From positions 34,472,387-34,536,386 of the forward strand of contig CM019218.1 in the NCBI GenBank assembly GCA_009741485.1: a stretch of 64,000 nucleotides of DNA, given 5' to 3'. Source of the DNA: Malurus cyaneus samueli (lineage: Eukaryota > Chordata > Aves > Passeriformes > Maluridae). Within the stretch, counting starts at the first letter, position 1, and the number at the start of each line of letters is the position of its first letter. The position numbers and the translations under genes are program-made. Under the pieces are notes generated by a model, which was given only the letters and a program-made list of their open reading frames with translations, searched no databases and was not told the origin of the DNA. Shown one piece after another: positions 9,531-40,400 of the stretch.

Positions 9531-12500
9531 TAGGGACAAAAATTTCTTTAACAAAAGCTAACACAAAATTTATATCTTGGACCGATCCCTTCAGATTGTT
9601 TGTTTTCCATTCCTCAGCAGACCTGCGTACTGCCCACCACACTGTCCTGCAGCTGCTGTGTTCTCAACTTCAGTTTCTGTCTTCTGGGCAGAAAAACTAT
9701 CTGCTTCTACAGTCACATGCTTTTTAGACAACTTGTCTATATATTTATCATTTCTGCACCATAGATAATACTGTCACATTTGAAGATTTACCCTTTCTAA
9801 ACCCGCCAAGGCCACTGCCATATTGTCTTTGTTGTTCAGATCCCTTCCCTGTTATAATTTAGTGAAAAAGCATTCAGCTGTAGGCACTCCTGCTTCTCTC
9901 TCCTTGGGAAGACCAAAATCATATTTTAGAAAGTAATGTGAAACTGACTTGTGGCAAGTTGGAAGAAGGGGATGAAGGAGACACTCAGGTTTTGTGAGAA
10001 GACTGACAATCTCTTAAAATCTCATAAAATAGCTCTAGTTGAGTGAGGAATATTTGAGTTCGCTTTTAAAGACTCCAAGAGATGCACTGCTGGGAATTTC
10101 ATTGCTAGAATTGCTTAGCAAATCCATGCAAGCATGTTGGTACTTACAATTTTATAGATAAATATGAAGACACATAAGCATGATTTATTGATAGAGCATA
10201 AGCTATATATAGTGCCCTTAACTGTATTATTAAAACTGAAGGTAAATAATTAATGGAAGAAGAGAAATACATACAGCTCTGGCAGTTTTGATGGGAAGCA
10301 TTCCTGTCTTGCAGTAATTAAAATGGAATATATTCTGAGTATATTTTTATGTCTTAATGGCAGAAAAGATTATTTCCTCATTTCACCTGCCTGCTAAGAG
10401 GCATTGTGTGTGGCTGCAGAAGCTGTGCAGGCAGTGTGAGAGGAGTCAGGGAGGGAAAATGCTTATAGCTATAAGGCTGGAATGCCATCACACTCAGGGT
10501 GGGATTGCTGCCCATGTGTTGACCAGTTCTGTGGTTGACCCTCAGGGTAGTTTCAGATGAGATGTAACTCAAATAATATGTGTTACTTCTGCCAAGTTCA
10601 CTGCTGACCATTCCTGTGACAAACATTACAGAAAGGCACAGGCTGGATTCAGCAGCAAACAGGAGACAAAGTTAATATTTTTAGGATTAGAATCAGAGGA
10701 CTACTCAAGCAAAGCAAAATTCAGCTGGCAGTTGGTTATGTCGCCATAGAGACCTCTCTTGGGATTGAGAGGAAAAGATGGGGGACCACCCCAAAGAACT
10801 CAGAGCAGTCCCTTTCACGACTCAGGCCATCTTGCTTAGTGAATTGACTCAGTTAAAGACAGGTAGGAGCACCTGTAGGGTATTTTTTTTACTGGATGAG
10901 GAGTCATTTATTGACACCATTTCCATGCTAACAACATGAGTAAGATGAAAGTGACCTATGACCTTACACCCAGTTGCTAAATTGCCTGGAGTCAGAACCA
11001 GCAGTGGTTATCAGACAGTCTAAGCAGCCCAAACACTTCACCTGAACACCTTCCAATGCAACCACTACCACAGCTCCCCACCTTACTGTCCAGGTGGAGA
11101 ACTGAACTGTATTCATGGGGGCTATGGGAAACCATTCACAAGTTCAGCCCCAGGAAAGCCTCAAATGGGAGAGAGAGGGCTTCTACTGCCACCACTACAT
11201 GTGCCACACCCTTTTGCAAAGGCAGGGGTGCTCTCATGTCCACTCTGAAGATGAGAAATGCAAAAACTCAAACCTTGGTTTCTCATTTTGCTTCCATCAG
11301 AGGCACAATCTGTTGATTTCAATATATTTTGGAGCAGCACTTCATGACCTTCACTGCCTCAAAAGCAATGATACACAAAAGGTAAAAAGATGCCAAAGGA
11401 CACATTATAATTCCCATTTCATTCTGCCACACCTGTGTAGCAACAGAGTCCTGGAGCATGCTGGGTGGTTCCACAGGAAAAATATGAAAAGTTGCTGCTC
11501 TTGAATTTTAACTGCAAGAAACCTGCACAATTATTTCAAAGTATTTCTTGCATCCCAAAACAGCATAAATTGGGAACAATATTAAGTGGCAGATGGTGGT
11601 GGTAGGGTAGCAGTTATTTCAGTGAAATTGAGAATTTGACACCATATTTCTCAGCAGCCACTGCTATGCCTGAACTAGGTTTGACTTTAATATGATTCCA
11701 TTTGCTTCAGGGAGTGCAAAGCAGTGCTCCACCAGCTGATGAACTGCAGTCTGGCAGAGCAGCATTGGAGAAGCACTCCGAACACTCTTGAGGCCCCCTT
11801 TGCGAATTTTCAAATGCAATTAAGTGCAGATCTATTTATAACTCCTGCTAGGGGCACCTATAAGCACCAGATGTAACAGCAGTAACTGCTCAAACACCTT
11901 TGTCAGATTCATGTCTGATCATAACGTTAGAATCATGGTCATTCTTGGTTATGTAGTAAGCCTAATGGGGCATTTTCAAGTTATTCCTACTTCAAGGAGT
12001 GCTCAATGACCTAAAATAGTGCAGTTGTCAACTCTACCATGTCAGGAACATGGCTGCTCATTAGAAGACACAAAGCAGAGGAAAATGTTTACCACTCAGT
12101 ATTTAAATACTGAAATTTTCATTTCAATTTGTATGAATTAATCACAGCCCTGTTTCCCTGACAATGTATGTAAGGCTGTCCTGCTGAGAAGATGTAGGAG
12201 TATCTTCATTTCTATAGATATAAGGGCTTTCAAAAACCATAATGGACAAAACTTTTTCCTGTAATTTTTAGTATAATTTTCTGAAGTAATAAAACCCCCC
12301 AGTATTTCATTTCTTATGACATCAGGGCCTTGTGGTGAGTCCTTCCCAAACACTGAGCCCACTGCTCCAGTCCAAGCCCCAGTGAGGATCTGTGCCTGTT
12401 CCATGCTCAGAGAATTCATCTTCCAGGTAAAAAGGCTGAAACTTGACCAAGCACTAAAATCAATAACGGCATTAAAATCAAAACTCCTGCAACTCTGTCA

Positions 12501-12749
12501 GCTCCCCCATGGTTTCTAATAAAGCTTGGGACGTATCACAAGCGAGCAATCAGACATGAATAATGAATTACAACCATGCTCATAGAGCTTTACATATTCA
12601 CTGTCTCAGCACCGCTCAGGTCTCGGCACGGCAACACCCTACGATAATGACAAGGCACAGCTCCCCCGTTTAGATCAATGCATTTCTGTATGCGCAGACA
12701 TTCGCTGTGGGATACAGGTGGGCTGGGTTTGGACCCAAGGAAAACGCCC

Positions 12750-13080
12750 CGGGGAAGCCGCCTTGGGCCGCACAAACCCAGCGCCAACTCACAGCCGCGG
12801 CTCCGCGGCGGGACCTCCCTCCAGGAGCCCCGGGCCGGGCGGAAGCAGCGGGCAGCCGTAACCACAGTGTCGGGAAACAGGGCCGTGATTAACGCGTCAA
12901 AAAGCGAAATGAAGATTGAGTTAATAAACTGAACTCCCCGGCGGGCATCGAGGCCGCGCTCCCCGCGGAAGTGACGGCGGCGGGCGGAAGTGCCGTCGGG
13001 CAGGGCGGAGGTGCGCGGGGAGCGGCCGTGCCGCGCAGGTGAGTGGCGGCCCGAGCTGCCCGGAGCAGCGGCCCAGGGTG
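12750..13080 (+). promoter_or_regulatory. Duplicated RPAP1-type CpG promoter and exon 1, unit 1
   Basis: A GC-rich island carries a composite ETS/CRE-like motif GGAAGTGACGG at 12,967-12,977 and a second GGAAGTG at 12,985-12,991. It then has an exon-1-like end, CCGCGCAG, followed by a perfect donor GTGAGT at 13,039. The sequence is homologous to, but clearly diverged from, the promoter and exon 1 in front of RPAP1 (37,176-37,227). The next acceptor of good quality before an open frame is the one ahead of env at 16,291-16,292, which would leave a 3.25 kb intron. Whether it is active is unknown. Confidence 0.7.
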
Positions 13081-15226
13081 ACAGCGTTTGCCTCAAAGCT
13101 TAAACGCTGCTTCTGGCAGGCATTTGGGAGAGCATTGTGCACCTCCGTTCTCTGTAAAGTAAACGCTGCACTGACACAATGGTGCTGCACTGGTGCTTAG
13201 GGTCCCTCACTGTCCTGACTGACCTTCCTCCCCAGGCTCACACTTGGACTGAAGTTGGTTGATTCAGAAGTGGATCCTTGAAGCAATCTGTGGCTTTGTT
13301 GCCTTCTGAGCATTGTTGTTTAGTCAGATCTCTCGTCCCAACCGTGCCTGTAAAACTTCATGCAGCACTGATGGGTTTTATAGACAGTGTCCCGAGCATG
13401 ACAGAAGGCTCATGTTTGAGACTTATTACAGACACGGTGTATAACAGCAGATGATAGTGCGTCCACGCAGCAATCACTGTGTTGTGCAGTGTAAAGGTGC
13501 TCATAGTCCTTGGGCAGCATTTCTGATCCCTTTCGTGTGTTTGTAGGACAGTATCTCAGTGTGTTCCTTATGCTGGCTGGCTGGTGGTCCCTGTGGGCAA
13601 ACAGATCATGTGTGGTGAGCTTTAAGTAGCCAGTTGCAAGACTGGAGGTAAGCAGACTGCAGGATGCTGGGGTAAATGTTGATGCTCAGGAGTTTTTCGG
13701 TTGTCCTGCATGATTTCCTTGAGCTCTACTGGGTAGGAATGATGACTCCTGATGGTAAGGGAGTGTTGCTCGTGTGCTTCAGTGGCTTCCATAGGATGTG
13801 GAAGAAGGTACTGCTAGAAAGCAAAGTATTTCCGCACATTGATTCTGTCTGCAAGTCCCACGTGTATTGAAGCAAAGCCTTTGAGGAAAAGGTTCCTGGA
13901 GGAACATCGGACCTTGTTAGACAGCGGCTGCTTCGTTGTCTTCCTGTGCTGACAGTTTCCCAGAGACACAAAGGCAGTTTGAGAACTCACTGTATCTCTT
14001 TGATAACTGTATAATAGGGAGAGACTTGGACAAGTTTATGTAGAGCTGTGTGTGGAGGAGGCTTCTTGCAGAAAGATTAGCAGCACACTTTACTTCCAAG
14101 TGTGTATTTTGTGCCTGTTAATGCTGGCCTCCTCCTCTTTTGGCTTGAAGCCTGTGATGAAGGGCACGGAGCACTTGGCTTGGGATGCGTGTTCTGCTCC
14201 TTCTGGGTATCAAAGAGGGACCGAGCAAATGAAGTCTGGCTGTGGGAGCCCTGTTGTGGCAGCAAGTTCCATAAATAAACAGCAAGTAGGTGTGGGCTTA
14301 TGCTAGGAGTACACAAAAAAAAAAAAAAAAAGGATCTGTCTGTGGAGTTGCAGTTTTGCTGTGCAGTTGGGAGGGGAGTGGGCTGGAAGGGAGCATTTGT
14401 GCATTCTCACCATCAGTCAGAGCCGCAGTGAGATCCCTCCCAGATGTTTTTGTGTAAGGCCCTTCCCTGACAGTAGCAAGGCACCATGGCAGGGTGCTCC
14501 CCTCCCTTCCTGGCCTGAAGTGGCTTTGATTGATGGTTTTACACCAATACCTTAGCTATAACCAAAAACCAAATGTAAAACGTCCTCCCTCTTTTCTCAC
14601 TTAGAACACAGAGGATCTCATTTAACCAGCCTTGGTGAAGAATGAGATCCCTGAAAACAGGGTAAATGTTCAATTGTAGGTCATAAATTCTGCAGAATAA
14701 CTCTTGTGTCTGTGAGTATCTTTTCAGGAGTAACTCTTGTGTCTGTGAGTATCTTTTCGACCTGGTTTCTCCCCACATATTTTACAATCAAGTATGGTAA
14801 TGGTATAAAGAAAACAGTGGCTTCAGGGCAGTGGGCTGTACCTGCACAATGATCAAAGTTTGTTTTTGTCTGAAATTAAAGGATAGATTGTTTCCAAGCT
14901 TTGTATTTTCTAATGCGTTCTGCCTATCCATATGGCAGATAACTGGTTTTAAAAATCCATGTCCACTTTCCTTTCCAGTTTCACAATAAATTATGCCTGG
15001 GTCCTGCTGGGCTTTTAAAAGTGGAGGAGATTGAATATGTACAAAGTATTCCAACATACCGAGGGTGGGAGGGTGCCAAGTCTGCAGTGTTAGTGCTGAT
15101 CAGTGATTGAAATGAGTGTGAAATGTATTTGCGACAGTTTAGTTGCTGCCTGTGAGAAGCGATTGCTGGTCCCAGGCTCTGGGAATCAGGGTGGGGATAA
15201 TAGTCATAAATATTTGCTGGCCTGGT

Positions 15227-18200
15227 AGATATATTCACAGTATATTGGTGTGTGGTCCCGATGTGGCAGCAGTAGGATAAACCCAAACAGAGACAATTAC
15301 TCTCCCTGAAAATTTAGGTTTTCAAATTTTAGTAGAAAAGGTGTAACTCCCACCTTCTGACATAAAGTTGCTGGGAGTATGGTGGAGGGATGGAACAGTG
15401 TGTATTCACTCCAAAACCTTGACTTGAGCAAATAAAAATTCCTGTGTAGAAAAAGGAGCTACAATATGCCCTAGGCCTGCTGTTGGTTTGGAGAAAATAC
15501 ATCCTGGCTTTCTCCATCATAGCCTGCCCTCATCACAGTTTAACATATCAGAGAACTGCCTGGGCCTGGACCCCTTTCCATGTAGAAGTCCTAAAATTGT
15601 TAATATTCATGGCTGGGTTATATCAGATTTTATGACCAATATGTCCAACAGATCCACTTCTTATTGAATGGGACTTTGCAATTCTTGGATTATCAATACA
15701 TTGTGGCAATGGGGACCTGAGGGTCTGGCTCACCACATCAGGTTTTATTTGCACAGATTTAAAGATGAAGAAAAACTTTATTCAGTTTGGTAGAAGGGCC
15801 TCTGTGGGTTGTCTAGTTTTACCAGAAGCTGGAAAAGTTATATGGCAAGAACCAATAATTCTGAGGGGACCTTTCAAGGTCTTGAAACGTATACTGGCTA
15901 AAACTTCGCCTGATTTTGGGGCTGTGCAGGGATAATCCCATTTTGGGGTTGTGCCCATAACTCACAGCCTTTTGTCTTCAATCCCTACTCATACTCCCTG
16001 GAGCAAAAGAAGCCAAAGACTGAAAATCCTCTCTGTTAGTTAGGACAGCTGGTTTTGGTAGAATTACCAAGAGTAGGATTGGTAGCCCTGACCTTAAAAA
16101 AGCCACTTAACTTGTGTGCCTGGGTGGTGGATTGTTCCCTCCTTTTAATCATGTTTTGTTTTTATGCATGTATATGTTTTACAGATTATCTGAAATCTAC
16201 TGCTGGACCTATGCTTTCAACTGTTGAGTGGATGGATCATTTTGTGTATTTTTTAGTTTGATTTTGCTAAGCCTATTTTGCCTTTTTACTAGGAAAAAAA
16301 TGGTGTGGGAAAAGTTTTTACTCTTATGTTATGGATGTATTATTTTTTCTCCAGCGTTTGAGAATCAGAGTACTGAACCAAATTTAGCTTGGAGTTGATA
16401 CAAGGATTTATGCATATTTGGAATCATACAAATCAAGGAATATGTATTAACCTCCCCAACTCTGCCTCAGAGGGATTTAGATTTATGATGATTTGGTTAA
16501 ATTTTTCAGAAATATTAACGAGAGAACTAGATAATCTTAAAAAAACAGGAGGAAATGTTACCTGGGGAATGGTCGAGTCCCGTTTTCTCGACCAGAAGGA
16601 AGGACAACAATGGGCTGTAAATGGGACATGGGTAGAATACAAGAAAGCCTTTTACCAGTTCCCCCGTGACTCTACCTGGAGCCATTTATGGAATCAGACA
16701 TGTTATCGGTCATTAGACACCAACCCTACTGAGACATTGCAAAATGTCACTTCTATCCCTTGCACAGTGGTACCATGGTGGGATTCTCCTGCTGAGGGTG
16801 GGTTTTTTGAACACGAGTACAATTTACATTGGGATGCAGGATGGTGTATACAAATCCCCGATAACCCAGGAACCGCACACCAAGTTAACCGAACAAATTA
16901 TGAGTGGGCTTGGTCTCTGAAACAAATCTTTGACCCTACATCTACCCTACAATGGACCTCCAGGCCCCCACAGGGAAAATAGTAGAATGGGAAGTGGGGA
17001 AATCAGACTGTCAGGACCATCAGACCACACTACCTAATGGAGAGAGCATCTGCTGGAAAGTGAGGAACCGTAGAAGCATTATCCAAAGTAAATCAGAGAC
17101 CTCCTTTCTGAATTGTTCCCGTATATTAGATTGTACCACTGGAGCAGGTGAACCTATAGAAACCTGGTACATCTCGGAGCTGAGAACTTTTATCCGGGAC
17201 ATGTGCACCTGTTGGGATTATCCCAACTACGGCTATCTTAACCAAGATACTCGATGCAATGGGTCTTATGAAAATTCGGAGACAGCATTATCCTGTGGCA
17301 TTCCCGTTACACACGGCCCTGACCAAAGAAGGATCTGGAATTCAAGTCGCGAAGCACAGGAAGTTCTCCAAGGTGACCTGTATCAGTGTTCACAAGCCAA
17401 ATACCCAGCTCCACGGGGAACAGTATGGGCATGTTCAGATGGAAAAATGTATTCCCACTTGAACATGTATGATATGGCTGGACTCCAGTGTACTATTGGG
17501 TTTCCTACCATGTGTCCATCTAAAACGTTCAATTATACACTTTATCATAACAACAAAGCACGGAGAGAAATCCACAATCCAACAGATGCAAAAGGGTGGA
17601 TGGGGCATTCAAGTCCCCGACTATTATACCTGGGGACAAAATTGCTTTAGACTTAGAATCATTTTTTGTGTCTAGTGGAGTTATTGAAAGGCACAAATAT
17701 GTCTTGGAGAACTTAACTAGGCAAGTCCATGTGTTAAGCAATTGGACTGACGTTCACTCGGGGAACCAAATTTGCAGGTCCAGCAGGAATCTAAAACGGC
17801 TTTGCAGAACCGTTTAGCCCTAGATGTGTTGTTGTTGAAAGAGAATGGAGTATGTGGGATGCTAAACCTTACGGATGGAGAATGCTGTGTCACTGTCCAT
17901 AACGCCACCACCACCATAGAAGAGGCGCGTCAGAAGATGAAGGAGATTGCTGAGCAAACGGGAGAACTGTTTCAAGCAATGCATCCCAAGGACTAGTTTG
18001 ATGGACTGAGCCTGGATTGTGGGTCACACTAAAGTGCCTTGGATTTATGGGATGGGGAAGGTGGCTTGTGTGTGTTGCCCTTATGATACTGTGTAGATTC
18101 TTGGGTTTGATGATAGGTGAAAAAGTCACATGAAACTGTTTGCTTGTGATGAGTTCTTATGGTTATAGAGGAAGGGGCAGAGTTTCTAGCACTGTTTAAT

Positions 18201-19001
18201 TCCATACCACTCACGTATGGCAGGGACATGGCTGCAGCAGGAGGAAGCCAGGGGCTGGAGGGGAAGGGTGGCTATCTTTTGCTATGCTTGGAAGTGTGCA
18301 GGTTTGGGGCCATCCTGGTGGACCTACCCCTATCTGCCACTGGTGGTCCCTTTCCTATTCCTCTGAGCTGTGGCTTTTCTGGTTTGGTGCTCAAAGACAG
18401 TGCTGGTGAGCCCAAGAGCTGGTGAGCTGCTCCAAAGAAAGAAAGAAAGCAGCAGCATTGCAGGCCCAGCTGAGCCACGTAGAGCCCAAGCCACAGCTGC
18501 TGTGACCCCAGCAGCCACTGGAGTGCCACTGAAACCTCCAAGCTCTCCAGTCCTGCTCCCAAAAAGCCAGGCCCAGGAGGAGGGTCCCCTGACCTGCTTC
18601 AGAGCCCTGTCAGGTTCCACCAGATTTTCCCTTGTCCCTGTTCTTCCATGGTTTTCTGCCTGAGGGGCGAAAGTTAAGTTGCAAGCCTCCCCAATATTCT
18701 GCTTTGCTTCCCCATGTACCACATTACTCAGTGCAGGACCAGCAATCTTTTGCCTTTGGGAAAACCACACTGGGCTGTGTTTGGGAAGTGTTTTTGTTTG
18801 TTCACTGAATACCTTTTTGTGGGTAAAACACTCTTGTCTTTTGTATGCTCCTTTATTAATGTTGTTTGGTTATTGCAATTTTTCAGTAAATTGTGATTTC
18901 AATTTATAATCTCTCCTAGTGTTTCCTCCACTACCGGAAGCGGGAGGGGAAAGGGGGCAGCTCAAGTGGGTTTAATTTTCCCAGTGGGTTTTAAATCAAC
19001 A
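15227..19001 (+). mobile_element. Endogenous retrovirus fragment, unit 1 (env + LTR-like tail)
   Basis: Homology to RPAP1 intron 1 ends near 15,226 (matching 40,211 in unit 4), and unrelated sequence begins. It holds about 1.07 kb that I cannot assign, then env (16,300-17,996), then about 1 kb ending in an LTR-like tail. The tail (about 18,830-19,001) resembles the 3' end of avian ERVK-like LTRs, with a TTATTGCAATTTTTCAGTAAA-like stretch, a GGGAGGGGAAAGGGGG tract and a terminal GGTTTTAAATCAACA-like end. No gag, protease or polymerase is visible, so the provirus is heavily 5'-truncated. The next unit starts directly after the tail. Confidence 0.7.
16300..17996 (+). pseudogene. Retroviral envelope copy 1, frameshifted as assembled
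   Basis: Same gene as the intact copy at 33,134-34,837, with the same signal-peptide start and the same stop. It is 1,697 rather than 1,704 bases, because five small losses break the frame: near 16,390, 16,965, 17,597, 17,642 and 17,747. They are one or two bases each and mostly fall in G or T runs. As assembled the protein is split over three frames. A splice acceptor (AG at 16,291-16,292) precedes the ATG by 7 bases. Apart from indels it barely differs from the other copies, so either it is a very young pseudogene or the breaks are consensus errors in a long-read assembly. Confidence 0.8.
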
Positions 19002-19922: not shown

Positions 19923-20269
19923 AAAGGCTGAAAATTGACTAAGCACTAAAATCCATAACCAACATTAAAGTCAAAGTTCCTGCAAGTTCTGACAGCTTCC
20001 CTATGGTTTCTAATAAAGCTTGGCACGTATTACAAGCGAGCAATCAGACATGAGTAATGAATTACAGCCATGCTCATAGAGCTTTACGTATTTACTCTCT
20101 CAAAACCGCTCAGGTCTCGGGCACGGCAACATTGTCTATTAAGTACAAGGCCCGGCTCCTGCGTTTACATCAATGCATTTCTGCGTGTGCAGACACTCGC
20201 TGTGGGCTGCAGCTGGCCTGTGTTTACACCCAAGGAAAACACCGGAGAAGCTGCCTTGAGCCGCATAAG

Positions 20270-20830
20270 CCCAGCGCGAACCACAGCGGGACGGAACCGC
20301 TGCAGCCCCGGCATGAGGGAGGGCCGGGGGCGGGCCCGTCGGAAGTGACGGCAGCGGGCGGAAGGGCCGCGGGGAGCGGCGGTACCGCGCAGGTGAGTGC
20401 TGGTCCGGGCTGTGGCGGCAGCGGGGCCCCTCCGGCCCGCGGGGATCCCGGCGCGGCCTGGCCTTGTTCGGTGTGGCGGGCAGGTGCCCAGCGCTGCGCC
20501 TTTCCCGTGGTGTGAAGAGGAGCGCGGTGACAGGCGCCGCTCAGGCCCCGGGGCAGCGGCCGTGCCCCCCGTGTACGGGGGTGCGGAAGCAGCGGGCAGC
20601 CGTAACCACAGTGTCGGGAAACAGGGCCGTGATTAACGCGTCAAAAAGCGAAATGAAGATTGAGTTAATAAACTGAACTCCCCGGCGGGCATCGAGGCCG
20701 CGCTCCCCGCGGAAGTGACGGCGCGGGCGGAAGTGCCGTCGGGCAGGGCGGAGGTGCGCGGGGAGCGGCCGTGCCGCGCAGGTGAGTGGCGGCCCGAGCT
20801 GCCCGGAGCAGCGGCCCAGGGTGACAGCGT
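20270..20830 (+). promoter_or_regulatory. Hybrid double promoter of unit 2
   Basis: Two promoter/exon-1 modules lie in tandem. The first, of RPAP1 type 2, has GGAAGTGACG at 20,341-20,350 and a donor GTGAGT at 20,393. The second, of type 1, has GGAAGTGACG at 20,711-20,720 and a donor at 20,782. The junction near 20,580 marks a recombination point between two diverged copies. Either donor could splice to the env acceptor at 24,044-24,045. Confidence 0.7.
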
Positions 20831-29539: not shown

Positions 29540-29900
29540 GGGCTGGGTTTGGACCCAAGGAAAACGCCCCGGGGAAGCCGCCTTGGGCCGCACAAACCCA
29601 GCGCCAACTCACAGCCGCGGCTCCGCGGCGGGACCTCCCTCCAGGAGCCCCGGGCCGGGCGGAAGCAGCGGGCAGCCGTAACCACAGTGTCGGGAAACAG
29701 GGCCGTGATTAACGCGTCAAAAAGCGAAATGAAGATTGAGTTAATGAAACTGAACTCCCCGGCGGGCATCGAGGGCCGCGCTCCCCGCGGAAGTGACGGC
29801 GGCGGGCGGAAGTGCCGTCGGGCAGGGCGGAGGTGCGCGGGGAGCGGCCGTGCCGCGCAGGTGAGTGGCGGCCCGAGCTGCCCGGAGCAGCGGCCCAGGG
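29540..29900 (+). promoter_or_regulatory. Duplicated RPAP1-type CpG promoter and exon 1, unit 3
   Basis: Same type 1 island as in unit 1, with GGAAGTGACGG at 29,789-29,799, a second ETS-like site shortly after, and a perfect donor GTGAGT at 29,861 following CCGCGCAG. It is the candidate promoter for the intact env copy: splicing from 29,861 to the acceptor at 33,126 would place a short non-coding leader directly in front of the env ATG. Confidence 0.68.
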
Positions 29901-32900
29901 TGACAGCGTTTGCCTCAAAGCTTAAACGCTGCTTCTGGCAGGCATTTGGGAGAGCATTGTGCACCTCCGTTCTCTGTAAAGTAAACGCTGCACTGACACA
30001 ATGGTGCTGCACTGGTGCTTAGGGTCCCTCACTGTCCTGACTGACCTTCCTCCCCAGGCTCACACTTGGACTGAAGTTGGTTGATTCAGAAGTGGATCCT
30101 TGAAGCAATCTGTGGCTTTGTTGCCTTCTGAGCATTGTTGTTTTAGTCAGATCTCTCGTCCCAACCGTGCCTGTAAAACTTCATGCAGCACTGATGGGTT
30201 TTATAGACAGTGTCCCGAGCATGACAGAAGGCTCATGTTTGAGACTTATTACAGACACGGTGTANAACAGCAGATGATAGTGCGTCCACGCAGCAATCAC
30301 TGTGTTGTGCAGTGTAAAGGTGCTCATAGTCCTTGGGCAGCATTTCTGATCCCTTNCGTGTGTTTGTAGGACAGTATCTCAGTGTGTTCCTTATGCTGGC
30401 TGGCTGGTGGTCCCTGTGGGCAAACAGATCATGTGTGGTGAGCTTTAAGTAGCCAGTTGCAAGACTGGAGGTAAGCAGACTGCAGGATGCTGGGGTNANT
30501 GNTGATGCTCAGNAGTTTTTNNGNTGTCCTGCATGATTTCCTTGAGCGCTGCTGGGTAGGAATGATGACTCCTGATGGTAAGGGAGTGTTGCTCGTGTGC
30601 TTCAGTGGCTTCCATAGGATGTGGAAGAAGGTACTGCTAGAAAGCAAAGTATTTTCCGCACATTGATTCTGTCTGCAAGTCCCACGTGTGTTGAAGCAAA
30701 GCCTTTGAGGAAAAGGTTCCTGGAGGAACATCGGACCTTGTTAGACAGCGGCTGCTTCGTTGTCTTCCTGTGCTGACAGTTTCCCAGAGACACAAAGGCA
30801 GTTTGAGAACTCACTGTATCTCTTTGATAACTGTATAATAGGGAGAGACTTGGACAAGTTTATGTAGAGCTGTGTGTGGAGGAGGCTTCTTGCAGAAAGA
30901 TTAGCAGCACACTTTACTTCCAAGTGTGTATTTTGTGCCTGTTAATGCTGGCCTCCTCCTCTTTTAGGCTTTGAAGCCTGTGATGGAAGGGCACGGAGCA
31001 CTTGGCTTGGGATGCGTGTTCTGCTCCTTCTGGGTATCAAAGAGGGACCGAGCAAATGAAGTCTGGCTGTGGGAGCCCTGTTGTGGCAGCAAGTTCCATA
31101 AATAAACAGCAAGTAGGTGTGGGCTTATGCTAGGAGTACACAAAAAAAAAAAAGGATCTGTCTGTGGAGGTTGCAGTTTTTGCTGTGCAGTTGGGAGGGG
31201 AGTGGGCTGGAAGGGAGCATTTGTGCATTCTCACCATCAGTCAGAGCCGCAGTGAGATCCCTCCCAGATGTTTTTGTGTAAGGCCCTTCCCTGACAGTAG
31301 CAAGGCACCATGGCAGGGTGCTCCCCTCCCTTCCTGGCCTGAAGTGGCCAGTGATTGATGGTTTTACACCGATACCTTACATAAAACCAAAAACCAAATG
31401 TAAAACATCCTGGCCCTCTTTTCTCACTTAGAACACAGAGGATCTCATTTAACCAGCCTTGGTGAAGAATGAGATCCCTGAAAACAGGGTAAATGTTCCA
31501 ATTGTAGGTCATAAATTCTGCAGGAATAACTCTTGTGTCTGTGAGTATCTTTTCAGGAGTAACTCTTGTGTCTGTGAGTATCTTTTCGACCTGGTTTCTC
31601 CCCACATATTTTACAATCAAGTATGGTAATGGTATAAAGAAAACAGTGGCTTCAGGGCAGTGGGCTGTACCTGCACAATGATCAAAGTTTGTTTTTGTCT
31701 GAAATTAAGGCAGAGATTTGTTTCCAAGCTTTGTATTTTCTAATGCGTTCTGCCTATCCATATGGCAGATAACTGGTTTTAAAAATCCATGTCCACTTTC
31801 CTTTCCAGTTTCACAATAAATTATGCCTGGGTCCTGCTGGGCTTTTAAAAGTGGAGGAGATTGAATATGTACAAAGTATTCCAACATACCGAGGGTGGGA
31901 GGGTGCCAAGTCTGCAGTGTTAGTGCTGATCAGTGATTGAAATGAGTGTGAAATGTATTTCCAGGCGGTTTAGTTGCTGCCTGTGAGAAACGGATTGCTG
32001 GTCCCAGGCTCTGGGAATCAGGGGTGGGGAGTAATAGTCATAAATATTTGCTGGCCTGGTAGATATATTCACAGTATATTGGTGTGTGGTCCCGATGTGG
32101 CAGCAGTAGGATAAACCCAAACAGAGACAATTACTCTCCCTGAAAATTTAGGTTTTCAAATTTTAGTAGAAAAGGTGTAACTCCCACCTTCTGACATAAA
32201 GTTGCTGGGAGTATGGTGGAGGGATGGAACAGTGTGTATTCACTCCAAAACCTTGACTTGAGCAAATAAAAATTCCTGTGTAGAAAAAGGAGCTACAATA
32301 TGCCCTAGGCCTGCTGTTGGTTTGGAGAAAATACATCCTGGCTTTCTCCATCATAGCCTGCCCTCATCACAGTTTAACATGTCCGAGAACTGCCTGGGCC
32401 TGGACCCCTTTCCATGTAGAAGTCCTAAAATTGTTAATATTCATGGCTGGGTTATATCAGATTTTATGACCAATATGTCCAACAGATCCACTTCTTATTG
32501 AATGGGACTTTGCAATTCTTGGATTATCAATACATTGTGGCAATGGGGACCTGAGGGTCTGGCTCACCACATCAGGTTTTATTTGCACAGATTTAAAGAT
32601 GAAGAAAAACTTTATTCAGTTTGGTAGAAGGGCCTCTGTGGGTTGTCTAGTTTTACCAGAAGCTGGAAAAGTTATATGGCAAGAACCAATAATTCTGAGG
32701 GGACCTTTCAAGGTCTTGAAACGTATACTGGCTAAAACTTCGCCTGATTTTGGGGCTGTGCAGGGATAATCCCATTTTGGGGTTGTGCCCATAACTCACA
32801 GCCTTTTGTCTTCAATCCCTACTCATACTCCCTGGAGCAAAAGAAGCCAAAGACTGAAAATCCTCTCTGTTAGTTAGGACAGCTGGTTTTGGTAGAATTA

Positions 32901-33104
32901 CCAAGAGTAGGATTGGTAGCCCTGACCTTAAAAAAGCCACTTAACTTGTGTGCCTGGGTGGTGGATTGTTCCCTCCTTTTAATCATGTTTTGTTTTTATG
33001 CATGTATATGTTTTACAGATTATCTGAAATCTACTGCTGGACCTATGCTTTCAACTGTTGAGTGGATGGATCATTTTGTGTATTTTTTAGTTTGATTTTG
33101 CTAA

Positions 33105-33126
33105 GCCTATTTTGCCTTTTTACTAG
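33105..33126 (+). promoter_or_regulatory. Splice acceptor in front of env
   Basis: A pyrimidine-rich tract, TTTTGCCTTTTTACTAG, ends in AG at 33,125-33,126, 7 bases before the env ATG. The same site is at 16,291-16,292 and 24,044-24,045 in the other units. Retroviral env is normally made from a spliced RNA, so this may be the original viral env acceptor, now positioned behind a duplicated host exon 1. Confidence 0.6.
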
Positions 33127-33133
33127 GAAAAAA

Positions 33134-34837
33134 ATGGTGTGGGAAAAGTTTTTACTCTTATGTTATGGATGTATTATTTTTTCTCCAGCGTTTGAGAATC
33201 AGAGTACTGAACCAAATTTAGCTTGGGAGTTGATACAAGGATTTATGCATATTTGGAATCATACAAATCAAGGAATATGTATTAACCTCCCCAACTCTGC
33301 CTCAGAGGGATTTAGATTTATGATGATTTGGTTAAATTTTTCAGAAATATTAACGAGAGAACTAGATAATCTTAAAAAAACAGGAGGAAATGTTACCTGG
33401 GGAATGGTCGAGTCCCGTTTTCTCGACCAGAAGGAAGGACAACAATGGGCTGTAAATGGGACATGGGTAGAATACAAGAAAGCCTTTTACCAGTTCCCCC
33501 GTGACTCTACCTGGAGCCATTTATGGAATCAGACATGTTATCGGTCATTAGACACCAACCCTACTGAGACATTGCAAAATGTCACTTCTATCCCTTGCAC
33601 AGTGGTACCATGGTGGGATTCTCCTGCTGAGGGTGGGTTTTTTGAACACGAGTACAATTTACATTGGGATGCAGGATGGTGTATACAAATCCCCGATAAC
33701 CCAGGAACCGCACACCAAGTTAACCGAACAAATTATGAGTGGGCTTGGTCTCTGAAACAAATCTTTGACCCTACATCTACCCTACAATGGACCTCCAGGG
33801 CCCCCACAGGGAAAATAGTAGAATGGGAAGTGGGGAAATCAGACTGTCAGGACCATCAGACCACACTACCTAATGGAGAGAGCATCTGCTGGAAAGTGAG
33901 GAACCGTAGAAGCATTATCCAAAGTAAATCAGAGACCTCCTTTCTGAATTGTTCCCGTATATTAGATTGTACCACTGGAGCAGGTGAACCTATAGAAACC
34001 TGGTACATCTCGGAGCTGAGAACTTTTATCCGGGACATGTGCACCTGTTGGGATTATCCCAACTACGGCTATCTTAACCAAGATACTCGATGCAATGGGT
34101 CTTATGAAAATTCGGAGACAGCATTATCCTGTGGCATTCCCGTTACACACGGCCCTGACCAAAGAAGGATCTGGAATTCAAGTCGCGAAGCACAGGAAGT
34201 TCTCCAAGGTGACCTGTATCAGTGTTCACAAGCCAAATACCCAGCTCCACGGGGAACAGTATGGGCATGTTCAGATGGAAAAATGTATTCCCACTTGAAC
34301 ATGTATGATATGGCTGGACTCCAGTGTACTATTGGGTTTCCTACCATGTGTCCATCTAAAACGTTCAATTATACACTTTATCATAACAACAAAGCACGGA
34401 GAGAAATCCACAATCCAACAGATGCAAAAGGGTGGATTGGGGGCATTCAAGTCCCCGACTATTATACCTGGGGACAAAATGTTGCTTTAGACTTAGAATC
34501 ATTTTTTGTGTCTAGTGGAGTTATTGAAAGGCACAAATATGTCTTGGAGAACTTAACTAGGCAAGTCCATGTGTTAAGCAATTGGACTGGACGTTCACTC
34601 GGGGAACCAAATTTGCAGGTCCAGCAGGAATCTAAAACGGCTTTGCAGAACCGTTTAGCCCTAGATGTGTTGTTGTTGAAAGAGAATGGAGTATGTGGGA
34701 TGCTAAACCTTACGGATGGAGAATGCTGTGTCACTGTCCATAACGCCACCACCACCATAGAAGAGGCGCGTCAGAAGATGAAGGAGATTGCTGAGCAAAC
34801 GGGAGAACTGTTTCAAGCAATGCATCCCAAGGACTAG
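33134..34837 (+). CDS. Endogenous retroviral envelope protein, anchorless, 567 aa
   Basis: Single-exon open frame for an env glycoprotein. Residues 1 to about 19 form a signal peptide (basic/polar start, then LLLCYGCIIF). The surface part is rich in Cys and Trp, and the whole protein has 16 N-glycosylation sequons. A basic KARR at residues 420-423 lies where a furin-type SU/TM cleavage site is expected. The TM-like part has a heptad-like stretch, an LQNRLALD segment starting at residue 504 (the conserved immunosuppressive-type region of retroviral env), then C521 and C531-C532. The frame ends at residue 567, before any membrane anchor, so the product should be secreted or ER-retained. A longer frame from a GTG at 33,062 is unlikely, because a splice acceptor (AG 33,125-33,126) lies between it and the ATG. 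Retroviral env origin is firm; a host function is inference. Confidence 0.88.
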   Translation: MVWEKFLLLCYGCIIFSPAFENQSTEPNLAWELIQGFMHIWNHTNQGICINLPNSASEGFRFMMIWLNFSEILTRELDNLKKTGGNVTWGMVESRFLDQKEGQQWAVNGTWVEYKKAFYQFPRDSTWSHLWNQTCYRSLDTNPTETLQNVTSIPCTVVPWWDSPAEGGFFEHEYNLHWDAGWCIQIPDNPGTAHQVNRTNYEWAWSLKQIFDPTSTLQWTSRAPTGKIVEWEVGKSDCQDHQTTLPNGESICWKVRNRRSIIQSKSETSFLNCSRILDCTTGAGEPIETWYISELRTFIRDMCTCWDYPNYGYLNQDTRCNGSYENSETALSCGIPVTHGPDQRRIWNSSREAQEVLQGDLYQCSQAKYPAPRGTVWACSDGKMYSHLNMYDMAGLQCTIGFPTMCPSKTFNYTLYHNNKARREIHNPTDAKGWIGGIQVPDYYTWGQNVALDLESFFVSSGVIERHKYVLENLTRQVHVLSNWTGRSLGEPNLQVQQESKTALQNRLALDVLLLKENGVCGMLNLTDGECCVTVHNATTTIEEARQKMKEIAEQTGELFQAMHPKD

Positions 34838-36554
34838 TTTGATGGACTGAGCCTGGATTGTGGGTCACACTAAAGTGCCTTGGATTTATGGGATGGGGAA
34901 GGTGGCTTGTGTGTGTTGCCCTTATGATACTGTGTAGATTCTTGGGTTTGATGATAGGTGAAAAAGTCACATGAAACTGTTTGCTTTGTGATGAGTTTCT
35001 TATGGTTATAGAGGAAAGGGGCAGAGTTTCTAGCACTGTTTAATTCCATACCACTCACGTATGGCAGGGACATGGCTGCAGCAGGAGGAAGCCAGGGGCT
35101 GGAAGGGGAAGGGTGGCTATCTTTTGCTATGCTTGGAAGTGTGCAGGTTTTGGGGCCATCCTGGTGGACCTAGCCCCTATCTGCCACTGGTGGTCCCTTT
35201 CCTATTCCTCTGAGCTGTGGCTTTTCTGGTTTGGTGCTCAAAGACAGTGCTGGTGAGCCCAAGAGCTGGTGAGCTGCTCCAAGAGAAAGAAAGAAAGCAG
35301 CAGCATTGCAGAGCCCAGCTGAGCCACGTAGAGCCCAAGCCACAGCTGCTGTGACCCCAGCAGCCACTGGAGTGCCACTGAAACCTCCAAGCTCTCCAGT
35401 CCTGCTCCCAAAAAGCCAGGCCCAGGAGGAGGGTCCCCTGACCTGCTTCAGAGCCCTGTCAGGTTCCACCAGATTTTCCCTTGTCCCTGTTCTTCCATGG
35501 TTTTCTGCCTGAGGGGCGAAAGTTAAGTTGCAAGCCTCCCCAATATTCTGCTTTGCTTCCCCATGTACCACATTACTCAGTGCAGGACCAGCAATCTTTT
35601 GCCTTTGGGAAAACCACACTGGGTGCTGTGTTTGGGAAGTGTTTTTGTTTGTTCACTGGTGAATACCTTTTTGTGGGTAAAACACTCTTGTCTTTTGTAT
35701 GCTCCTTTATTAATGTTGTTTTGGTTATTGCAATTTTTCAGTAAATTGTGATTTCAATTTATAATCTCTCCTAGTGTTTCCTCCACTACCGGAAGCGGGG
35801 AGGGGAAAGGGGGCAGCTCAAGTGGGTTTAATTTTCCCAGTGGGTTTTAAATCAACACAGAGCTAGAAGAAGGAGATGAAGGAGATTGCTCAGACTTGTG
35901 AAAAGATTGATGACCTCATGAAATTAAAAAAATCTCATAAAAAGTCTCATAAAATAGCTCTAGTTGAGTGAGGAATATTTGAGTTCGCTTTTAAAGACTC
36001 CAAGAGATGCACTGCTGGGAATTTCATTGCTAGAATTGCTTAGCAAATCCATGCAAGCATGTTGGTACTTATAATTTTATAAGATAAATATGAAGACACA
36101 TAAGCATGATTTATTGATAGAGCATAAGCTATATATAGTGCCCTTAACTGTATTATTAAAACTGAAGGTAAATAATTAATGGAAGAAGAGAAATACATAC
36201 AGCTCTGGCAGTTTTGATGGGAAGCATTCCTGTCTTGCAGTAATTAAAATGGAATATATTCTGAGTATATTTTTATGTCTTAATGGCAGAAAAGATTATT
36301 TCCTCATTTCACCTGCCTGCTAAGAGGCATTGTGTGTGGCTGCAGAAGCTGTGCAGGCAGTGTGAGAGGAGTTATGGAGGGAAAATGCTTATGGCTATGA
36401 GGCTGGAATGCCATCACACTCAGGGTGGGATTGCTGCCCATGGTGTTGACCAGTTCTGTGGTTGACCCTCAGGGTAGTTTCAGATGAGATGTAGCTGAAG
36501 TAATATAATCTATTGCCAAGCAATAGATGTCAAGCAATGCCAAGAAATTGATGC

Positions 36555-36756
36555 ACAAGAAATTCCACCTAAACATGAGGAAGAACTTTCCTGGTGACTG
36601 CATGGACAGTTGTCCAGAAGGTGTGGATCTCCCTCATGGAGATATTCAGAACTTGGGTGCAATCCTGTGCCACGTGCTTTGGGATGACCCTGCTTGAAGG
36701 GAGATGCGACCAGTGACCCCTGTGGTCCTTCCAACCTGACTCATTCTGGTTCTGTA
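36555..36756 (+). mobile_element. CR1 LINE 3' fragment, unit 4
   Basis: The same CR1 insertion as at 19,695-19,922, but about 25 bases shorter because of many one- to four-base losses scattered through the element, while its flanks match unit 2 almost perfectly. Confidence 0.72.
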
Positions 36757-37069
36757 AAAAGGCTGAAAATTGACTAAGCACTAAAATCCATAACCAACAT
36801 TAAAGTCAAAGTTCCTGCAAGTTCTGACAGCTTCCCTATGGTTTCTAATAAAGCTTGGCACGTATTACAAGCGAGCAATCAGACATGAGTAATGAATTAC
36901 AGCCATGCTCATAGAGCTTTACGTATTTACTCTCTCAAAACCGCTCAGGTCTCGGGCACGGCAACATTGTCTATTAAGTACAAGGCCCGGCTCCTGCGTT
37001 TACATCAATGCATTTCTGCGTGTGCAGACACTCGCTGTGGGCTGCAGCTGGCCTGTGTTTACACCCAAG

Positions 37070-37450
37070 GAAAACACCGGAGAAGCTGCCTTGAGCCGCA
37101 TAAGCCCAGCGCGAACCACAGCGGGACGGAACCGCAGCAGCCCCGGCATGAGGGAGGGCCGGGGGCGGGCCCGTCGGAAGTGACGGCAGCGGGCGGAAGG
37201 GCCGCGGGGAGCGGCGGTACCGCGCAGGTGAGTGCTGGTCCGGGCTGTGGCGGCAGCGGGGCCCCTCCGGCCCGCGGGGATCCCGGCGCGGCCTGGCCTT
37301 GTTCGGTGTGGCGGGCAGGTGCCCAGCGCTGCGCCTTTCCCGTGGTGTGAAGAGGAGCGCGGTGACAGGCGCCGCTCAGGCCCCGGGGCAGCGGCCGTGC
37401 CCCCCGTGTACGGGGGTGCTGCGGGACCTGTGCCGCTGTGTTCCTCCTCC
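37070..37450 (+). promoter_or_regulatory. RPAP1: RPAP1 CpG-island promoter
   Basis: GC-rich island just upstream of and including RPAP1 exon 1. It is TATA-less, with a composite ETS/CRE-like GGAAGTGACGGC at 37,176-37,187, a GGGCGGAAG immediately after it, and a GC-box-like GGGGGCGGG at about 37,161-37,169. This is typical of a housekeeping promoter. The transcription start is not determinable from sequence but probably lies within about 60 bases downstream of the ETS/CRE motif. Confidence 0.72.
37188..37227 (+). other. RPAP1: RPAP1 exon 1 (non-coding, 5' border approximate)
   Basis: The exon end is fixed by CGCGCAG followed by the donor GTGAGT at 37,228. No ATG in this stretch is needed, because the RPAP1 start codon lies in exon 2. 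The 5' border is a guess from the promoter motif. Homologous exon ends occur at 13,038, 20,392, 20,781 and 29,860. Confidence 0.6.
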
Positions 37451-40400
37451 TTCTCTCCCTCCCCTCGCCAGATAGGCCTCTCTAGGCCGAGTCTCCGTCG
37501 CTTGTTTAAGACTTGAGTCAGCGTCGTTTGTGGAAGTCCGTGAGGGCTGTGAACGCGGTGGGAGCGCTGGGACGCATCACCTGTTCAGTGTGTTAATACC
37601 AGCTTGTTGCTTTTTATTTTCTTTTGTGCTATACTGGTGCCTGTTTATTGCAGAGACTTTCGAGGCAAGTGGGGACAGCAGTGTTTCTGTTGGCAAGGTG
37701 CTGTGTGCATGGACATGGTATAGAGTCACAGCCTCTGAGTCTTATGTCACCAGCATGAGACGTGGAGCCACTTTGAGGAGAATTTCTTGCAGTTGTTGCC
37801 TGTGGTGGCAACACTGGTGGTTTTTTTTTTTTTTTACGGGAGGAGTGTCTTTCCAGGTGTCTGCCTTCTGTGTAGCAACTAAAAGTGTCAAAACTATTGG
37901 CCGTTACAGCATTGTATACAGAAAGCATTTTTGTGATGGAGCAGAGAATGCACAGCACCATTTTGCAAAGCAGCCCGTAATCCTGAGTGAGGCTTTCATT
38001 GCTGATGATCTCAAGTGGGGAAATGGTACCTTTCCACTGGCTGCTGGGCTGCCCAGGAGATTGATTTGACTCTCTGCTTCTCCTTTTAGATTTTTATCAC
38101 AACCAACAATGTCTGAAGAAAGACGTTAGTTTGAAGCACTAATTGTGACAGGAGGACCTTGTATTCCACTTTGACCCAAATCTGCTAACTTTATCAAAAC
38201 AGTTGTAAAAACGTTGTAGACTTGAGAATGAGCGAATGCAAGGATTCAAAAATGACAGAAGCAGTCAGAGATGATTTTTTCGCTTCAACATATTCATCTT
38301 TTCCTTTTGACAGAGTGTAGTTTGTAGATGTTACTGTGATGTAAAAGTCTCCCTTTGCATGTTGGGCTCTGGTGCTGTGGAAGAAAAATGCACTGTAAAT
38401 GCAGATGAGGCAGAACTAATTAAAAAGCCTAACAGTATTGGATTATATCAAGTAAGACATATAGTGTCCACATAACAATCACTGTGTTGTGCCATATAAA
38501 GGTGCTCATAGTCCTTGGGCAGCATTTCTGATCCCTTACGTGTGTTTGTAGGACAGTATCTCAGTGTGTTCCTTATGCTGGCTGGCTGGTGGTCCCTGTG
38601 GGCAAACAGATCATGTGTGGTGAGCTTTAAGTAGCCAGTTGCAAGACTGGAGGTAAGCAGACTGCAGGATGCTGGGGTAAATGTTGATGCTCAGGAGTTT
38701 TTTAGCTGTCCTGCATGATTTCCTTGAGCTCTGCTGGGTAGGAATGATGACTCCTGATGGTAAGGGAGTGTTGCTCGTGTGCTTCAGTGGCTTCCATAGG
38801 ATGTGGAAGAAGGTACTGCTAGAAAGCAAAGTATTTTCCGCACATTGATTCTGTCTGCAAGTCCCACGTGTGTTGAAGCAAAGCCTTTGAGGAAAAGGTT
38901 CCTGGAGGAACATCGGACCTTGTTAGACAGCGGCTGCTTCGTTGTCTTCCTGTGCTGACAGTTTCCCAGAGACACAAAGGCAGTTTGAGAACTCACTGTA
39001 TCTCTTTGATAACTGTATAATAGGGAGAGACTTGGACAAGTTTATGTAGAGCTGTGTGTGGAGGAGGCTTCTTGCAGAAAGATTAGCAGCACACTTTACT
39101 TCCAAGTGTGTATTTTGTGCCTGTTAATGCTGGCCTCCTCCTCTTTTAGGCTTTGAAGCCTGTGATGGAAGGGCACGGAGCACTTGGCTTGGGATGCGTG
39201 TTCTGCTCCTTCTGGGTATCAAAGAGGGACCGAGCAAATGAAGTCTGGCTGTGGGAGCCCTGTTGTGGCAGCAAGTTCCATAAATAAACAGCAAGTAGGT
39301 GTGGGCTTATGCTAGGAGTACACAAAAAAAAAAAAGGATCTGTCTGTGGAGGTTGCAGTTTTTGCTGTGCAGTTGGGAGGGGAGTGGGCTGGAAGGGAGC
39401 ATTTGTGCATTCTCACCATCAGTCAGAGCCGCAGTGAGATCCCTCCCAGATGTTTTTGTGTAAGGCCCTTCCCTGACAGTAGCAAGGCACCATGGCAGGG
39501 TGCTCCCCTCCCTTCCTGGCCTGAAGTGGCCTTTGATTGATGGTTTTACACCAATACCTTAGCTATAACCAAAAACCAAATGTAAAACGTCCTAGCCCTC
39601 TTTTCTCACTTAGAACACAGAGGATCTCATTTAACCAGCCTTGGTGAAGAATGAGATCCCTGAAAACAGGATAAATATTCCAGTTGTAGGTCTTAAGTTG
39701 TGCAGGCAGTAACTCTTGTGTCTGTGAATATCTTTTCCACCTGGTTTCTCCCCACATATTTTACAATCAAGTAAGGTAATGGTATAAAGAAAACAGTGGC
39801 TTCAGGGCAGTGGCTGTACCTGCACAATGACCCAGGTTTGTTTTTGTCTGAAATTAAGGCTGTGATTTGTTTCCAAGCTTTGTATTTTCTAATGCATTCT
39901 GCCTGTCCATATGGCAGATAACTGTGGTTTTAAAAGTCCATGTCCACTTTCCTTTCTAGTTTCACAATAAATTATGCCTGCGTCCTGCTGGGCTTTTAAA
40001 AGTGGAGGAGATTGAATATGTACAGAGTATTCCAACATACCGAGGGTGGGAGGGTGCCAAGTCTGCAGTGTTAGTGCTGATCAGTGATTGAAATAAGTGT
40101 GAAATGTATTTGCAGACAGTTTAGTTGCTGCCTGTGAGAAGCTGATTGCTGGTCCCAGGCTCTGGGAATCAGAGGTGGAGAGTAATAGTCACAAATATTT
40201 TCCTGCCTGGTGAATGGGAGATGAAACAGTTGCCTTCCTGGTAAGGTGTCATGTGCACAGAGGTAAAAGTCAGTTACATATTTCACCCTTGTTCTTCAAC
40301 CCCAAACTGGCCTGGGCAGGAAATGTAGGTGCTTGCAAATAGCACGGCTTCTGCTATTTAGAGGCCAGTGACAGAGGATGAAAGCACGAGGCTGACATCA

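What the first reader, a model, noticed from the sequence alone, without database searches (positions are those of the whole stretch)
9955..40211. Tandem array pairing a duplicated RPAP1 promoter/exon 1 with a retroviral env gene
Seen: four units in direct order share the RPAP1 upstream region, CpG promoter, exon 1 donor and start of intron 1. In three of them the sequence switches at one common breakpoint (15,226, 22,980, 32,060) into a truncated retrovirus with env, where RPAP1's own copy continues to exon 2. Inference: a provirus fragment landed in one copy of intron 1, and the promoter-env cassette was then amplified as a unit, which may signal selection for dosage or diversity of the env product.
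Basis: partly seen in the sequence, partly recalled or inferred. Interest (0 to 1): 0.88.

Follow-up and report, generated by a model that had tools for sequence, protein, structure and literature searches.

The report
Anchorless viral envelope under housekeeping promoter
The assembly of a songbird genome, whose RPAP1 gene matches the superb fairywren, carries three side-by-side copies of an apparently old retroviral envelope gene, each behind a copy of the promoter region of the housekeeping gene RPAP1; one copy still has a full reading frame for an envelope without its membrane anchor, which is likely secreted and may block related viruses.

Summary
The array is in the sequence. Env is more than a fossil. 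Unit 3 encodes 567 residues, 496 identical without a gap to a predicted flycatcher protein that ends at the same residue, just before the membrane anchor. CpG is kept in env (0.43 of expectation) but lost in the rest of the same provirus (0.09) and in a broken relative elsewhere (0.07), so env has probably long been selected as a coding gene. The furin motif is also lost. Best reading: a captured, secreted Env decoy like Refrex-1 of cats, under a copied housekeeping promoter. Expression, secretion and antiviral activity are untested. Landing of the provirus in intron 1 is not supported: intron 1 does not resume after the LTR, and a provirus-free copy of the 3' flank starts at 9,957. Copy number and the broken frames in units 1 and 2 are uncertain, because one-base indels look like assembly error.

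The parts
9957..10579 (+). tail0: copy of the DNA that follows the 3' LTR in the units, here without provirus
   Evidence: Local alignment starts at 9957 = 35861 (168.5 points); the 53-base stretch left of 10008 scores 25 against a maximum of 15.5 in 1000 shuffles; LTR against 9001-9954 scores 13.5, shuffled maximum 17 of 200
12966..13038 (+). Unit 1 promoter/exon-1 module (CGGAAGTGACG ... CAG|GTGAGT donor)
13454..15226 (+). Unit 1 copy of RPAP1 intron-1 segment (38461-40211)
16300..17993 (+). Unit 1 env, frame broken by one-base indels in this assembly
20340..20392 (+). Unit 2 extra RPAP1-type promoter/exon-1 module, inside block B, a near-identical copy of RPAP1's own upstream block
20710..20781 (+). 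Unit 2 env-type promoter/exon-1 module
21198..22979 (+). Unit 2 copy of RPAP1 intron-1 segment
24052..25746 (+). Unit 2 env, frame broken by small indels in this assembly
29788..29860 (+). Unit 3 promoter/exon-1 module (29600-30000: GC 0.66, CpG o/e 1.02; exon ends at 29860)
30277..32060 (+). Unit 3 copy of RPAP1 intron-1 segment; 32060 is the switch into provirus
32061..33130 (+). Provirus relic upstream of env, probably decayed pol; CpG o/e 0.09
   Evidence: pol identity rests on position and on a 66% DNA match to a sibling relic with a protease-like frame, not on a direct Pfam or PDB hit (no retroviral match)
33117..33133 (+). Predicted splice acceptor (AG at 33125-33126) and 7-nt leader before the env ATG
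   Evidence: 5th best of 231 AG sites between donor and ATG with a recalled matrix
33134..34837 (+). Unit 3 env: open 567-codon frame, signal-peptide-like N-terminus (by hydropathy), 16 sequons, no membrane anchor
34849..34959 (+). Decayed relic of the membrane-anchor region, downstream of the stop; counterparts at 18008-18118 and 25761-25871
   Evidence: 4 of 6 tails of longer relatives match it at 44-54% over 39 residues (E 6e-8 to 8e-5); the other two do not match it well
35000..35859 (+). 3' LTR (bounds approximate)
   Evidence: 41 matches elsewhere in the genome to the stretch 34838-36506; five fetched: four near full length at K2P 0.27-0.32, one at 0.29 over 511 sites
36507..37419 (+). 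RPAP1's own upstream block and CpG promoter; exon 1 ends at 37227
38461..40211 (+). Segment of RPAP1 intron 1 shared with the units
40985..41173 (+). RPAP1 exon 2 coding part, starts MLSRPKPGESEADLL; exon 1 is therefore non-coding

Best explanation
The array holds three copies of a retroviral env gene, each downstream of a copied RPAP1 promoter/exon 1, and the intact copy is predicted to be spliced from that exon and to encode a secreted, anchorless Env that likely acts as a soluble decoy against related retroviruses. Shown: the copies, the promoter modules with donors, the 567-codon frame, the stop before a decayed anchor, absence of the furin motif, and CpG retention confined to env. Inferred: transcription from the CpG promoter; splicing of non-coding exon 1 to the acceptor 7 nt before the env ATG; secretion; long purifying selection, possibly since before Malurus and tyrant flycatchers split; receptor blocking as the function. 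Inferred history: an old provirus sat in the RPAP1 upstream flank; duplication and deletion joined a second RPAP1 promoter and intron-1 segment to its relic; parts were later homogenised with RPAP1 by gene conversion; the cassette was then copied again recently.
For: Env identity: 13 relatives at 38-87%, the 8 named ones all birds; PF00429 TLV_coat in 9 of 14 aligned rows, not in the window's own; TM part matches filovirus GP2 (best E 5.8e-5) and MLV-type TM (6.4e-4). Selection: 496 of 567 residues identical and no gap against P0001 of Myiozetetes cayanensis; RPAP1 of Tyrannus savana keeps 1097 of 1179. CpG: env 35 observed of 80.6 expected, rest of the relic 9 of 103.4, Fisher p 6e-8 (crude); broken env on C29 3 of 40.2; RPAP1 coding sample 0.33, four intron stretches 0.02-0.13. 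Without selection, 50-65 substitutions per lineage leave a stop-free frame in 3-6% of 400 runs. Age: LTR copies at K2P 0.27-0.32. Soluble form: no membrane-like 19-mer after the SU/TM site, stop followed by a decayed anchor; 5 of 5 anchored rows have the furin motif against 2 of 8 anchorless rows. Promoter: five CpG-rich modules with donors. Same chromosome in the flycatcher (weak): P0001's contig is 63.7 Mb; of five passerine RPAP1 rows on contigs over 30 Mb, three are 62.4-63.3 Mb.
Against: No RNA or protein data. This patchiness fits loss or masking in annotation, but also two separate captures. The chromosome-size argument is weak: the window's RPAP1 contig is 54.6 Mb, Aphelocoma's 68.0 and Onychostruthus' 36.1 Mb. 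P0002 (62%) ends at the same residue although its close relative P0003 runs past it, so the shared end may be convergent. P0004 and P0005 end soon after the furin site and P0009 is labelled partial, so their lack of an anchor may be an annotation effect. The shared intron piece itself has CpG 0.22, above the other introns. No AATAAA in the 1.7 kb after env, three ATTAAA. The fold prediction failed (pLDDT 30). By eye unit 3 keeps the immunosuppressive-like stretch that Refrex-1 lacks.
Confidence: 0.55

Rival explanations
1. Passenger: env copies are neutral relics that rode along in a recent segmental duplication upstream of RPAP1; unit 3 is open by chance and makes nothing useful.
For: In the assembly two of three env copies are broken; the last duplication is recent, A and A' differing by 2 substitutions in 2,259; no expression data.
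Against: CpG kept in env, equally in all three copies (35 each), and lost in the rest of the relic; gapless 567-residue match to a protein of another bird family; upstream relic, anchor and LTR of the same provirus are decayed.
Confidence: 0.17
2. Two captures: related viruses infected the Malurus and flycatcher lineages separately, so the 87% identity reflects viral ancestry, not host descent.
For: No named ortholog in other passerine protein sets; cross-species spread is usual for such viruses (recalled).
Against: Both proteins end at the same residue before the anchor; both lack the furin motif; the relic is CpG-depleted and its LTR family old; the flycatcher contig is near the size of several RPAP1 contigs.
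Confidence: 0.2
3. Assembly artefact (can be true beside the best explanation): the near-identical block 10,008-20,584 = 26,823-37,419 is one locus placed twice, so fewer units exist.
For: A and A' differ by 2 substitutions in 2,259, units 1 and 3 by none in env; indel events (63, of which 55 one base long) are about as many as substitution columns (66), as in poorly polished long reads.
Against: Unit 2 has 6 env substitutions of its own and another upstream block with an extra promoter module; the intron segments of units 1 and 3 carry 8 and 22 private substitutions. At least two unit types are distinct; a third is unsure.
Confidence: 0.3
4. Alternative first exons for RPAP1: the copied promoters matter for RPAP1 itself, and env is incidental.
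For: All module donors could splice to RPAP1 exon 2 (acceptor 40,935); exon 1 is non-coding.
Against: Does not explain CpG retention or the open frame of env.
Confidence: 0.08

Closest known systems
Refrex-1 (ERV-DC7/DC16 env, domestic cat)
   Same: Env gene truncated by a stop so that signal peptide and surface part remain; secreted; SU/TM cleavage also disrupted in the reconstructed full-length forms; high expression in most organs (PMC5923473, passages)
   Different: Stops at residues 252 and 298 within the surface subunit and lacks the immunosuppressive domain; here nearly the whole ectodomain is kept. The cat genes sit in proviruses, here the promoter is copied from RPAP1. Antiviral activity is shown there, not here
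FeLIX (enFeLV truncated env, cat)
   Same: Soluble truncated Env from a defective endogenous env; competitive receptor binding (PMC11019853, abstract)
   Different: Endogenous feline leukaemia virus; no duplicated host promoter known to me
Fv4 (mouse)
   Same: Endogenous locus listed as env and 3' LTR that restricts related viruses (PMC4306825, passages); control by a host promoter is recalled
   Different: Env is put into virions there, so anchored; no array behind copies of a named housekeeping promoter known to me
Myiozetetes cayanensis LOC126651033 protein (P0001)
   Same: 567 residues, 87% identical, same C-terminal end, no furin motif, no anchor
   Different: Its DNA, locus and promoter were not available; an annotated prediction only
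Suppressyn (human ERVH48-1)
   Same: Secreted truncated Env (recalled)
   Different: Placental fusion control (recalled); not compared here

Membership tests
Retroviral Env of gamma type (PF00429 TLV_coat relatives) | Sequence homology to known Env | tested here: met
   9 of 14 aligned rows hit PF00429 at E<=0.01, not the window row itself; 13 relatives at E<=10; TM part hits MLV-type and filovirus TM structures
Retroviral Env of gamma type (PF00429 TLV_coat relatives) | CX6CC motif next to an immunosuppressive-like stretch in TM | tested here: inconclusive
   By eye the stretch is there but the cysteines read C-X9-CC in the window and its relatives; CX6CC is recalled
Retroviral Env of gamma type (PF00429 TLV_coat relatives) | Furin site between SU and TM | tested here: not met
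   R-X-[KR]-R absent in the window, P0001, P0002, P0003, P0005 and P0008; present in all 5 anchored rows and in P0004 and P0009; P0013 does not reach the site
Retroviral Env of gamma type (PF00429 TLV_coat relatives) | Membrane anchor | tested here: not met
   Stop before it; highest 19-residue hydropathy after the site 1.18 against 2.45-2.94 in the 5 anchored rows
Secreted Env restriction factor (Refrex-1/FeLIX kind) | Signal peptide, truncated Env without anchor, open frame | tested here: met
   signal peptide by hydropathy only
Secreted Env restriction factor (Refrex-1/FeLIX kind) | Secretion and blocking of infection by receptor competition | not testable with these tools
   needs cell experiments
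Co-opted (domesticated) env gene | Long purifying selection on the frame | tested here: met
   Indirectly: CpG contrast and gapless match to P0001; dN/dS not possible without the second species' DNA
Co-opted (domesticated) env gene | Same locus in several species | tested here: inconclusive
   Only the size of the flycatcher contig bears on it, and the window's own contig is shorter
Fv4-like locus (env + 3' LTR under host promoter) | 5' truncated provirus joined to a host promoter | tested here: met
   promoter activity not tested
Syncytin | Fusogenic, anchored, cleaved Env | tested here: not met
   no anchor, no furin motif

The most novel reading that the evidence does not exclude
A passerine immune gene of great age: an Env captured before oscine and suboscine birds split, kept as a secreted decoy for tens of millions of years under a duplicated housekeeping promoter, and multiplied again in fairywrens.
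Probability: 0.35. Interest if true: 0.82.

Novelty: new variant of a known kind. Interest (0 to 1): 0.64.

Why it matters
The soluble Env decoys that I found in print are from mammals (listing; cats in the papers opened). If this one is old and secreted, birds also keep Env decoys, possibly for far longer, and a housekeeping promoter copied by segmental duplication can give a viral gene constant expression. It also offers a testable case of repeated loss of anchor and furin site in one avian Env family.

Tried and rejected
Landing of a provirus in intron 1: rejected as the simplest account, because intron 1 after 40,211 is not found again in the window and a provirus-free 3' flank exists at 9,957.

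A mobile env family spreading now: no support. The relic upstream of env has the three local copies and one 66% match; of 46 env matches in the genome 9 are at this locus and the other 37 are at most 66% identical (the tool calls its counts lower bounds).

Real loss of env in units 1 and 2: left open. Unit 1 env differs from unit 3 by no substitution but at 7 one-base indel sites.

Fold and fold search: the model of the 567-residue protein was useless (mean pLDDT 29.9), so no structure search was run. Pfam and PDB on pieces upstream of env gave no retroviral hit; at the sibling locus L016 one of three frames gave protease matches below Pfam's cut-offs. IMG/VR held no relative. In one search and again an end-to-end alignment of blocks B and B' gave 24 mismatches; BLAST gives 1 over 934, which I trust more, since the forced alignments used unequal ends. 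Recalled, from no call: the acceptor matrix, neutral rates, oscine/suboscine membership of the genera, younger dates for their split, and the meaning of the CX6CC and immunosuppressive motifs.

Not in print: (RPAP1, endogenous retrovirus, env) gave one paper, unrelated by title. Searches (20 of 84 listed; 15 of 38; 1 of 1; 12 of 166; 8 of 8; 5 of 5) listed none on an env gene of fairywrens or flycatchers, judged by title and start of abstract. Subscription journals are mostly missing there.
Full report
Setting. The window is 64 kb of a 54.6-Mb contig in a 1.07-Gb genome of 1,295 contigs. RPAP1 lies on the + strand; exon 2 holds the ATG at 40,985, so exon 1 (ending at 37,227) is non-coding. I cut 21 RPAP1 exon pieces (1,179 residues) from the window and its right flank. 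Twenty of the 21 (1,124 residues) occur letter for letter in the record of Malurus cyaneus samueli, which lacks the remaining 55-residue exon. Of 13 records compared out of the 120 listed, M. elegans has 1,156 identical residues, Pardalotus 1,108, Tyrannus savana 1,097 and Pitangus, probably a poorer gene model, 1,038. The genome is therefore very likely the superb fairywren (inference).

The array. Order from the left: tail0 (9,957-10,579), block A, unit 1, block B, unit 2, block A', unit 3, block B', RPAP1. Each unit holds a promoter/exon-1 module, about 400 bases without a BLAST match in RPAP1, a 1.75-kb piece of RPAP1 intron 1, then without a break a provirus relic: about 1.07 kb of decayed sequence, env, a decayed anchor, a 3' LTR of about 860 bases and about 650 bases of flank. 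The switch from intron to relic is the same in all three units. The modules carry CGGAAGTGACG and a CAG|GTGAGT donor, five of each in the window with 0.00 and 0.06 expected, in stretches with CpG o/e 0.83-1.02. Three are of an env type (71-72 bases from motif to donor) and two of RPAP1 type (52 bases). Unit 2 has one of each, because block B is a near-identical copy of RPAP1's upstream block (BLAST: 1 mismatch and 21 gap positions in 934).

Ages. Block A' differs from RPAP1's upstream block by 14.7% over 368 aligned sites (K2P 0.165), so the promoter was first duplicated long ago. The intron segment differs by 2.4-3.2%, unevenly: 0-0.8% in three of seven windows in the middle and 2.0-7.4% in the others, as a gene-conversion tract would leave. 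The last copying is recent: A and A' differ by 2 substitutions in 2,259. Of 41 matches elsewhere in the genome to the LTR-bearing stretch I fetched five; four align near full length at K2P 0.27-0.32, the fifth at 0.29 over 511 sites. The sequence upstream of env has no other match above 66%. The provirus family looks old, and I see no sign that it moves now.

The env protein. Unit 3 has an open frame of 567 codons. Pfam does not see it, but 9 of the 14 aligned rows match TLV_coat, and its C-terminal quarter matches filovirus GP2 and MLV-type TM structures. The best of 13 relatives is a predicted protein of the tyrant flycatcher Myiozetetes cayanensis: 567 residues, 496 identical, no gap, same end; the two form a pair with 100/100 support. 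Both end just before the region where anchored relatives enter the membrane; in the window a decayed piece of that region follows the stop of unit 3, with counterparts in units 1 and 2. Both lack the furin motif. Of 13 rows that reach the site, all 5 with an anchor have R-X-[KR]-R and 2 of the 8 without have it (P0013 does not reach the site and was left out). The rows are related, two of the eight end soon after the site and one is labelled partial, so this is a hint and not an independent test.

Selection. CpG decays fast in methylated non-coding DNA (established knowledge). In unit 3 env keeps 35 CpG of 80.6 expected, while the rest of the same provirus keeps 9 of 103.4 (Fisher p 6e-8, crude), and a broken env relative on contig C29 keeps 3 of 40.2 (one such relative was examined). 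Env is like a sample of RPAP1's coding sequence (0.33 over about 1,050 bases), the rest like four RPAP1 intron stretches (0.02-0.13); the intron segment inside unit 3 has 0.22. Because the comparison lies within one provirus, a recent insertion is a poor account of it. In a simulation without selection, a lineage with 50-65 substitutions (6-8% residue change) keeps a stop-free frame in 3-6% of 400 runs, before counting indels. DNA of the flycatcher gene was not available, so dN/dS could not be computed.

Common descent with the flycatcher gene is likely but not shown. For it: the same end, the same lost motif, the old provirus, and a contig of 63.7 Mb, where three of five passerine RPAP1 rows on contigs over 30 Mb are 62.4-63.3 Mb (Motacilla, Hirundo, Serinus). 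Against it: the other two are 68.0 (Aphelocoma) and 36.1 Mb (Onychostruthus), the window's own contig is 54.6 Mb, and none of the named rows is from another passerine. Suboscines and oscines split 71.4 Mya (84-58) by one study (PMC3917694, passages); younger dates are recalled.

Assembly quality. In the three-way comparison there are 66 substitution columns and 63 indel events, 55 of them one base long, spread evenly (20, 20 and 23 private to units 1, 2 and 3). Units 1 and 3 have no env substitution but differ at 7 one-base indel sites. The RPAP1 exons just outside the array match another record of the species letter for letter. Such a pattern points to consensus error in the repeat, so the broken frames in units 1 and 2 should be taken neither as real nor as false. 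The near-identity of the block 10,008-20,584 to 26,823-37,419 leaves open whether one copy was placed twice.

How it likely works. Transcription starts in the CpG promoter; the short non-coding exon 1 is spliced to the acceptor 7 nt before the env ATG (5th best of 231 AG sites with a recalled matrix); the product enters the secretory path, is not cleaved and not anchored, and leaves the cell. Outside it may bind the receptor of related viruses and block them, as Refrex-1 and FeLIX do in cats (PMC5923473, passages; PMC11019853, abstract). The kept ectodomain, the lost anchor and furin motif, and a housekeeping promoter all fit; nothing here tests activity.

Verdict. Observation confirmed with corrections; interpretation partly supported. 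The find is a new variant of a known kind, the co-opted soluble Env, in a new setting: a duplicated housekeeping promoter and an apparently old avian env.

Noticed in passing
38461-40211 against 13454-15226, 21198-22979, 30277-32060: Divergence between RPAP1 intron 1 and the units is 0-0.8% in the middle windows and 2.0-7.4% in the others, like a gene-conversion tract.
   Followed up: partly
P0002, P0003, P0005 (two unnamed assemblies, one owl): Env relatives at 55-62% also end before the anchor and lack R-X-[KR]-R, so anchor loss may have happened more than once in this family; P0005's end looks like a gene-model effect.
   Followed up: partly
1-800: Strong CpG-rich stretch (GC 0.77 in 1-500) about 9 kb left of the array, probably the promoter of the neighbouring gene.
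   Followed up: no
L016 (C178:14798500-14806500): Sibling provirus relic with a protease-like frame (Pfam gag-asp_proteas E 6.8e-5, below cut-off) and, by eye, env remains.
   Followed up: partly
36514-36748: A dispersed repeat of about 240 bases in the RPAP1 upstream block has at least 36 matches elsewhere in the genome at 73-84% identity.
   Followed up: no
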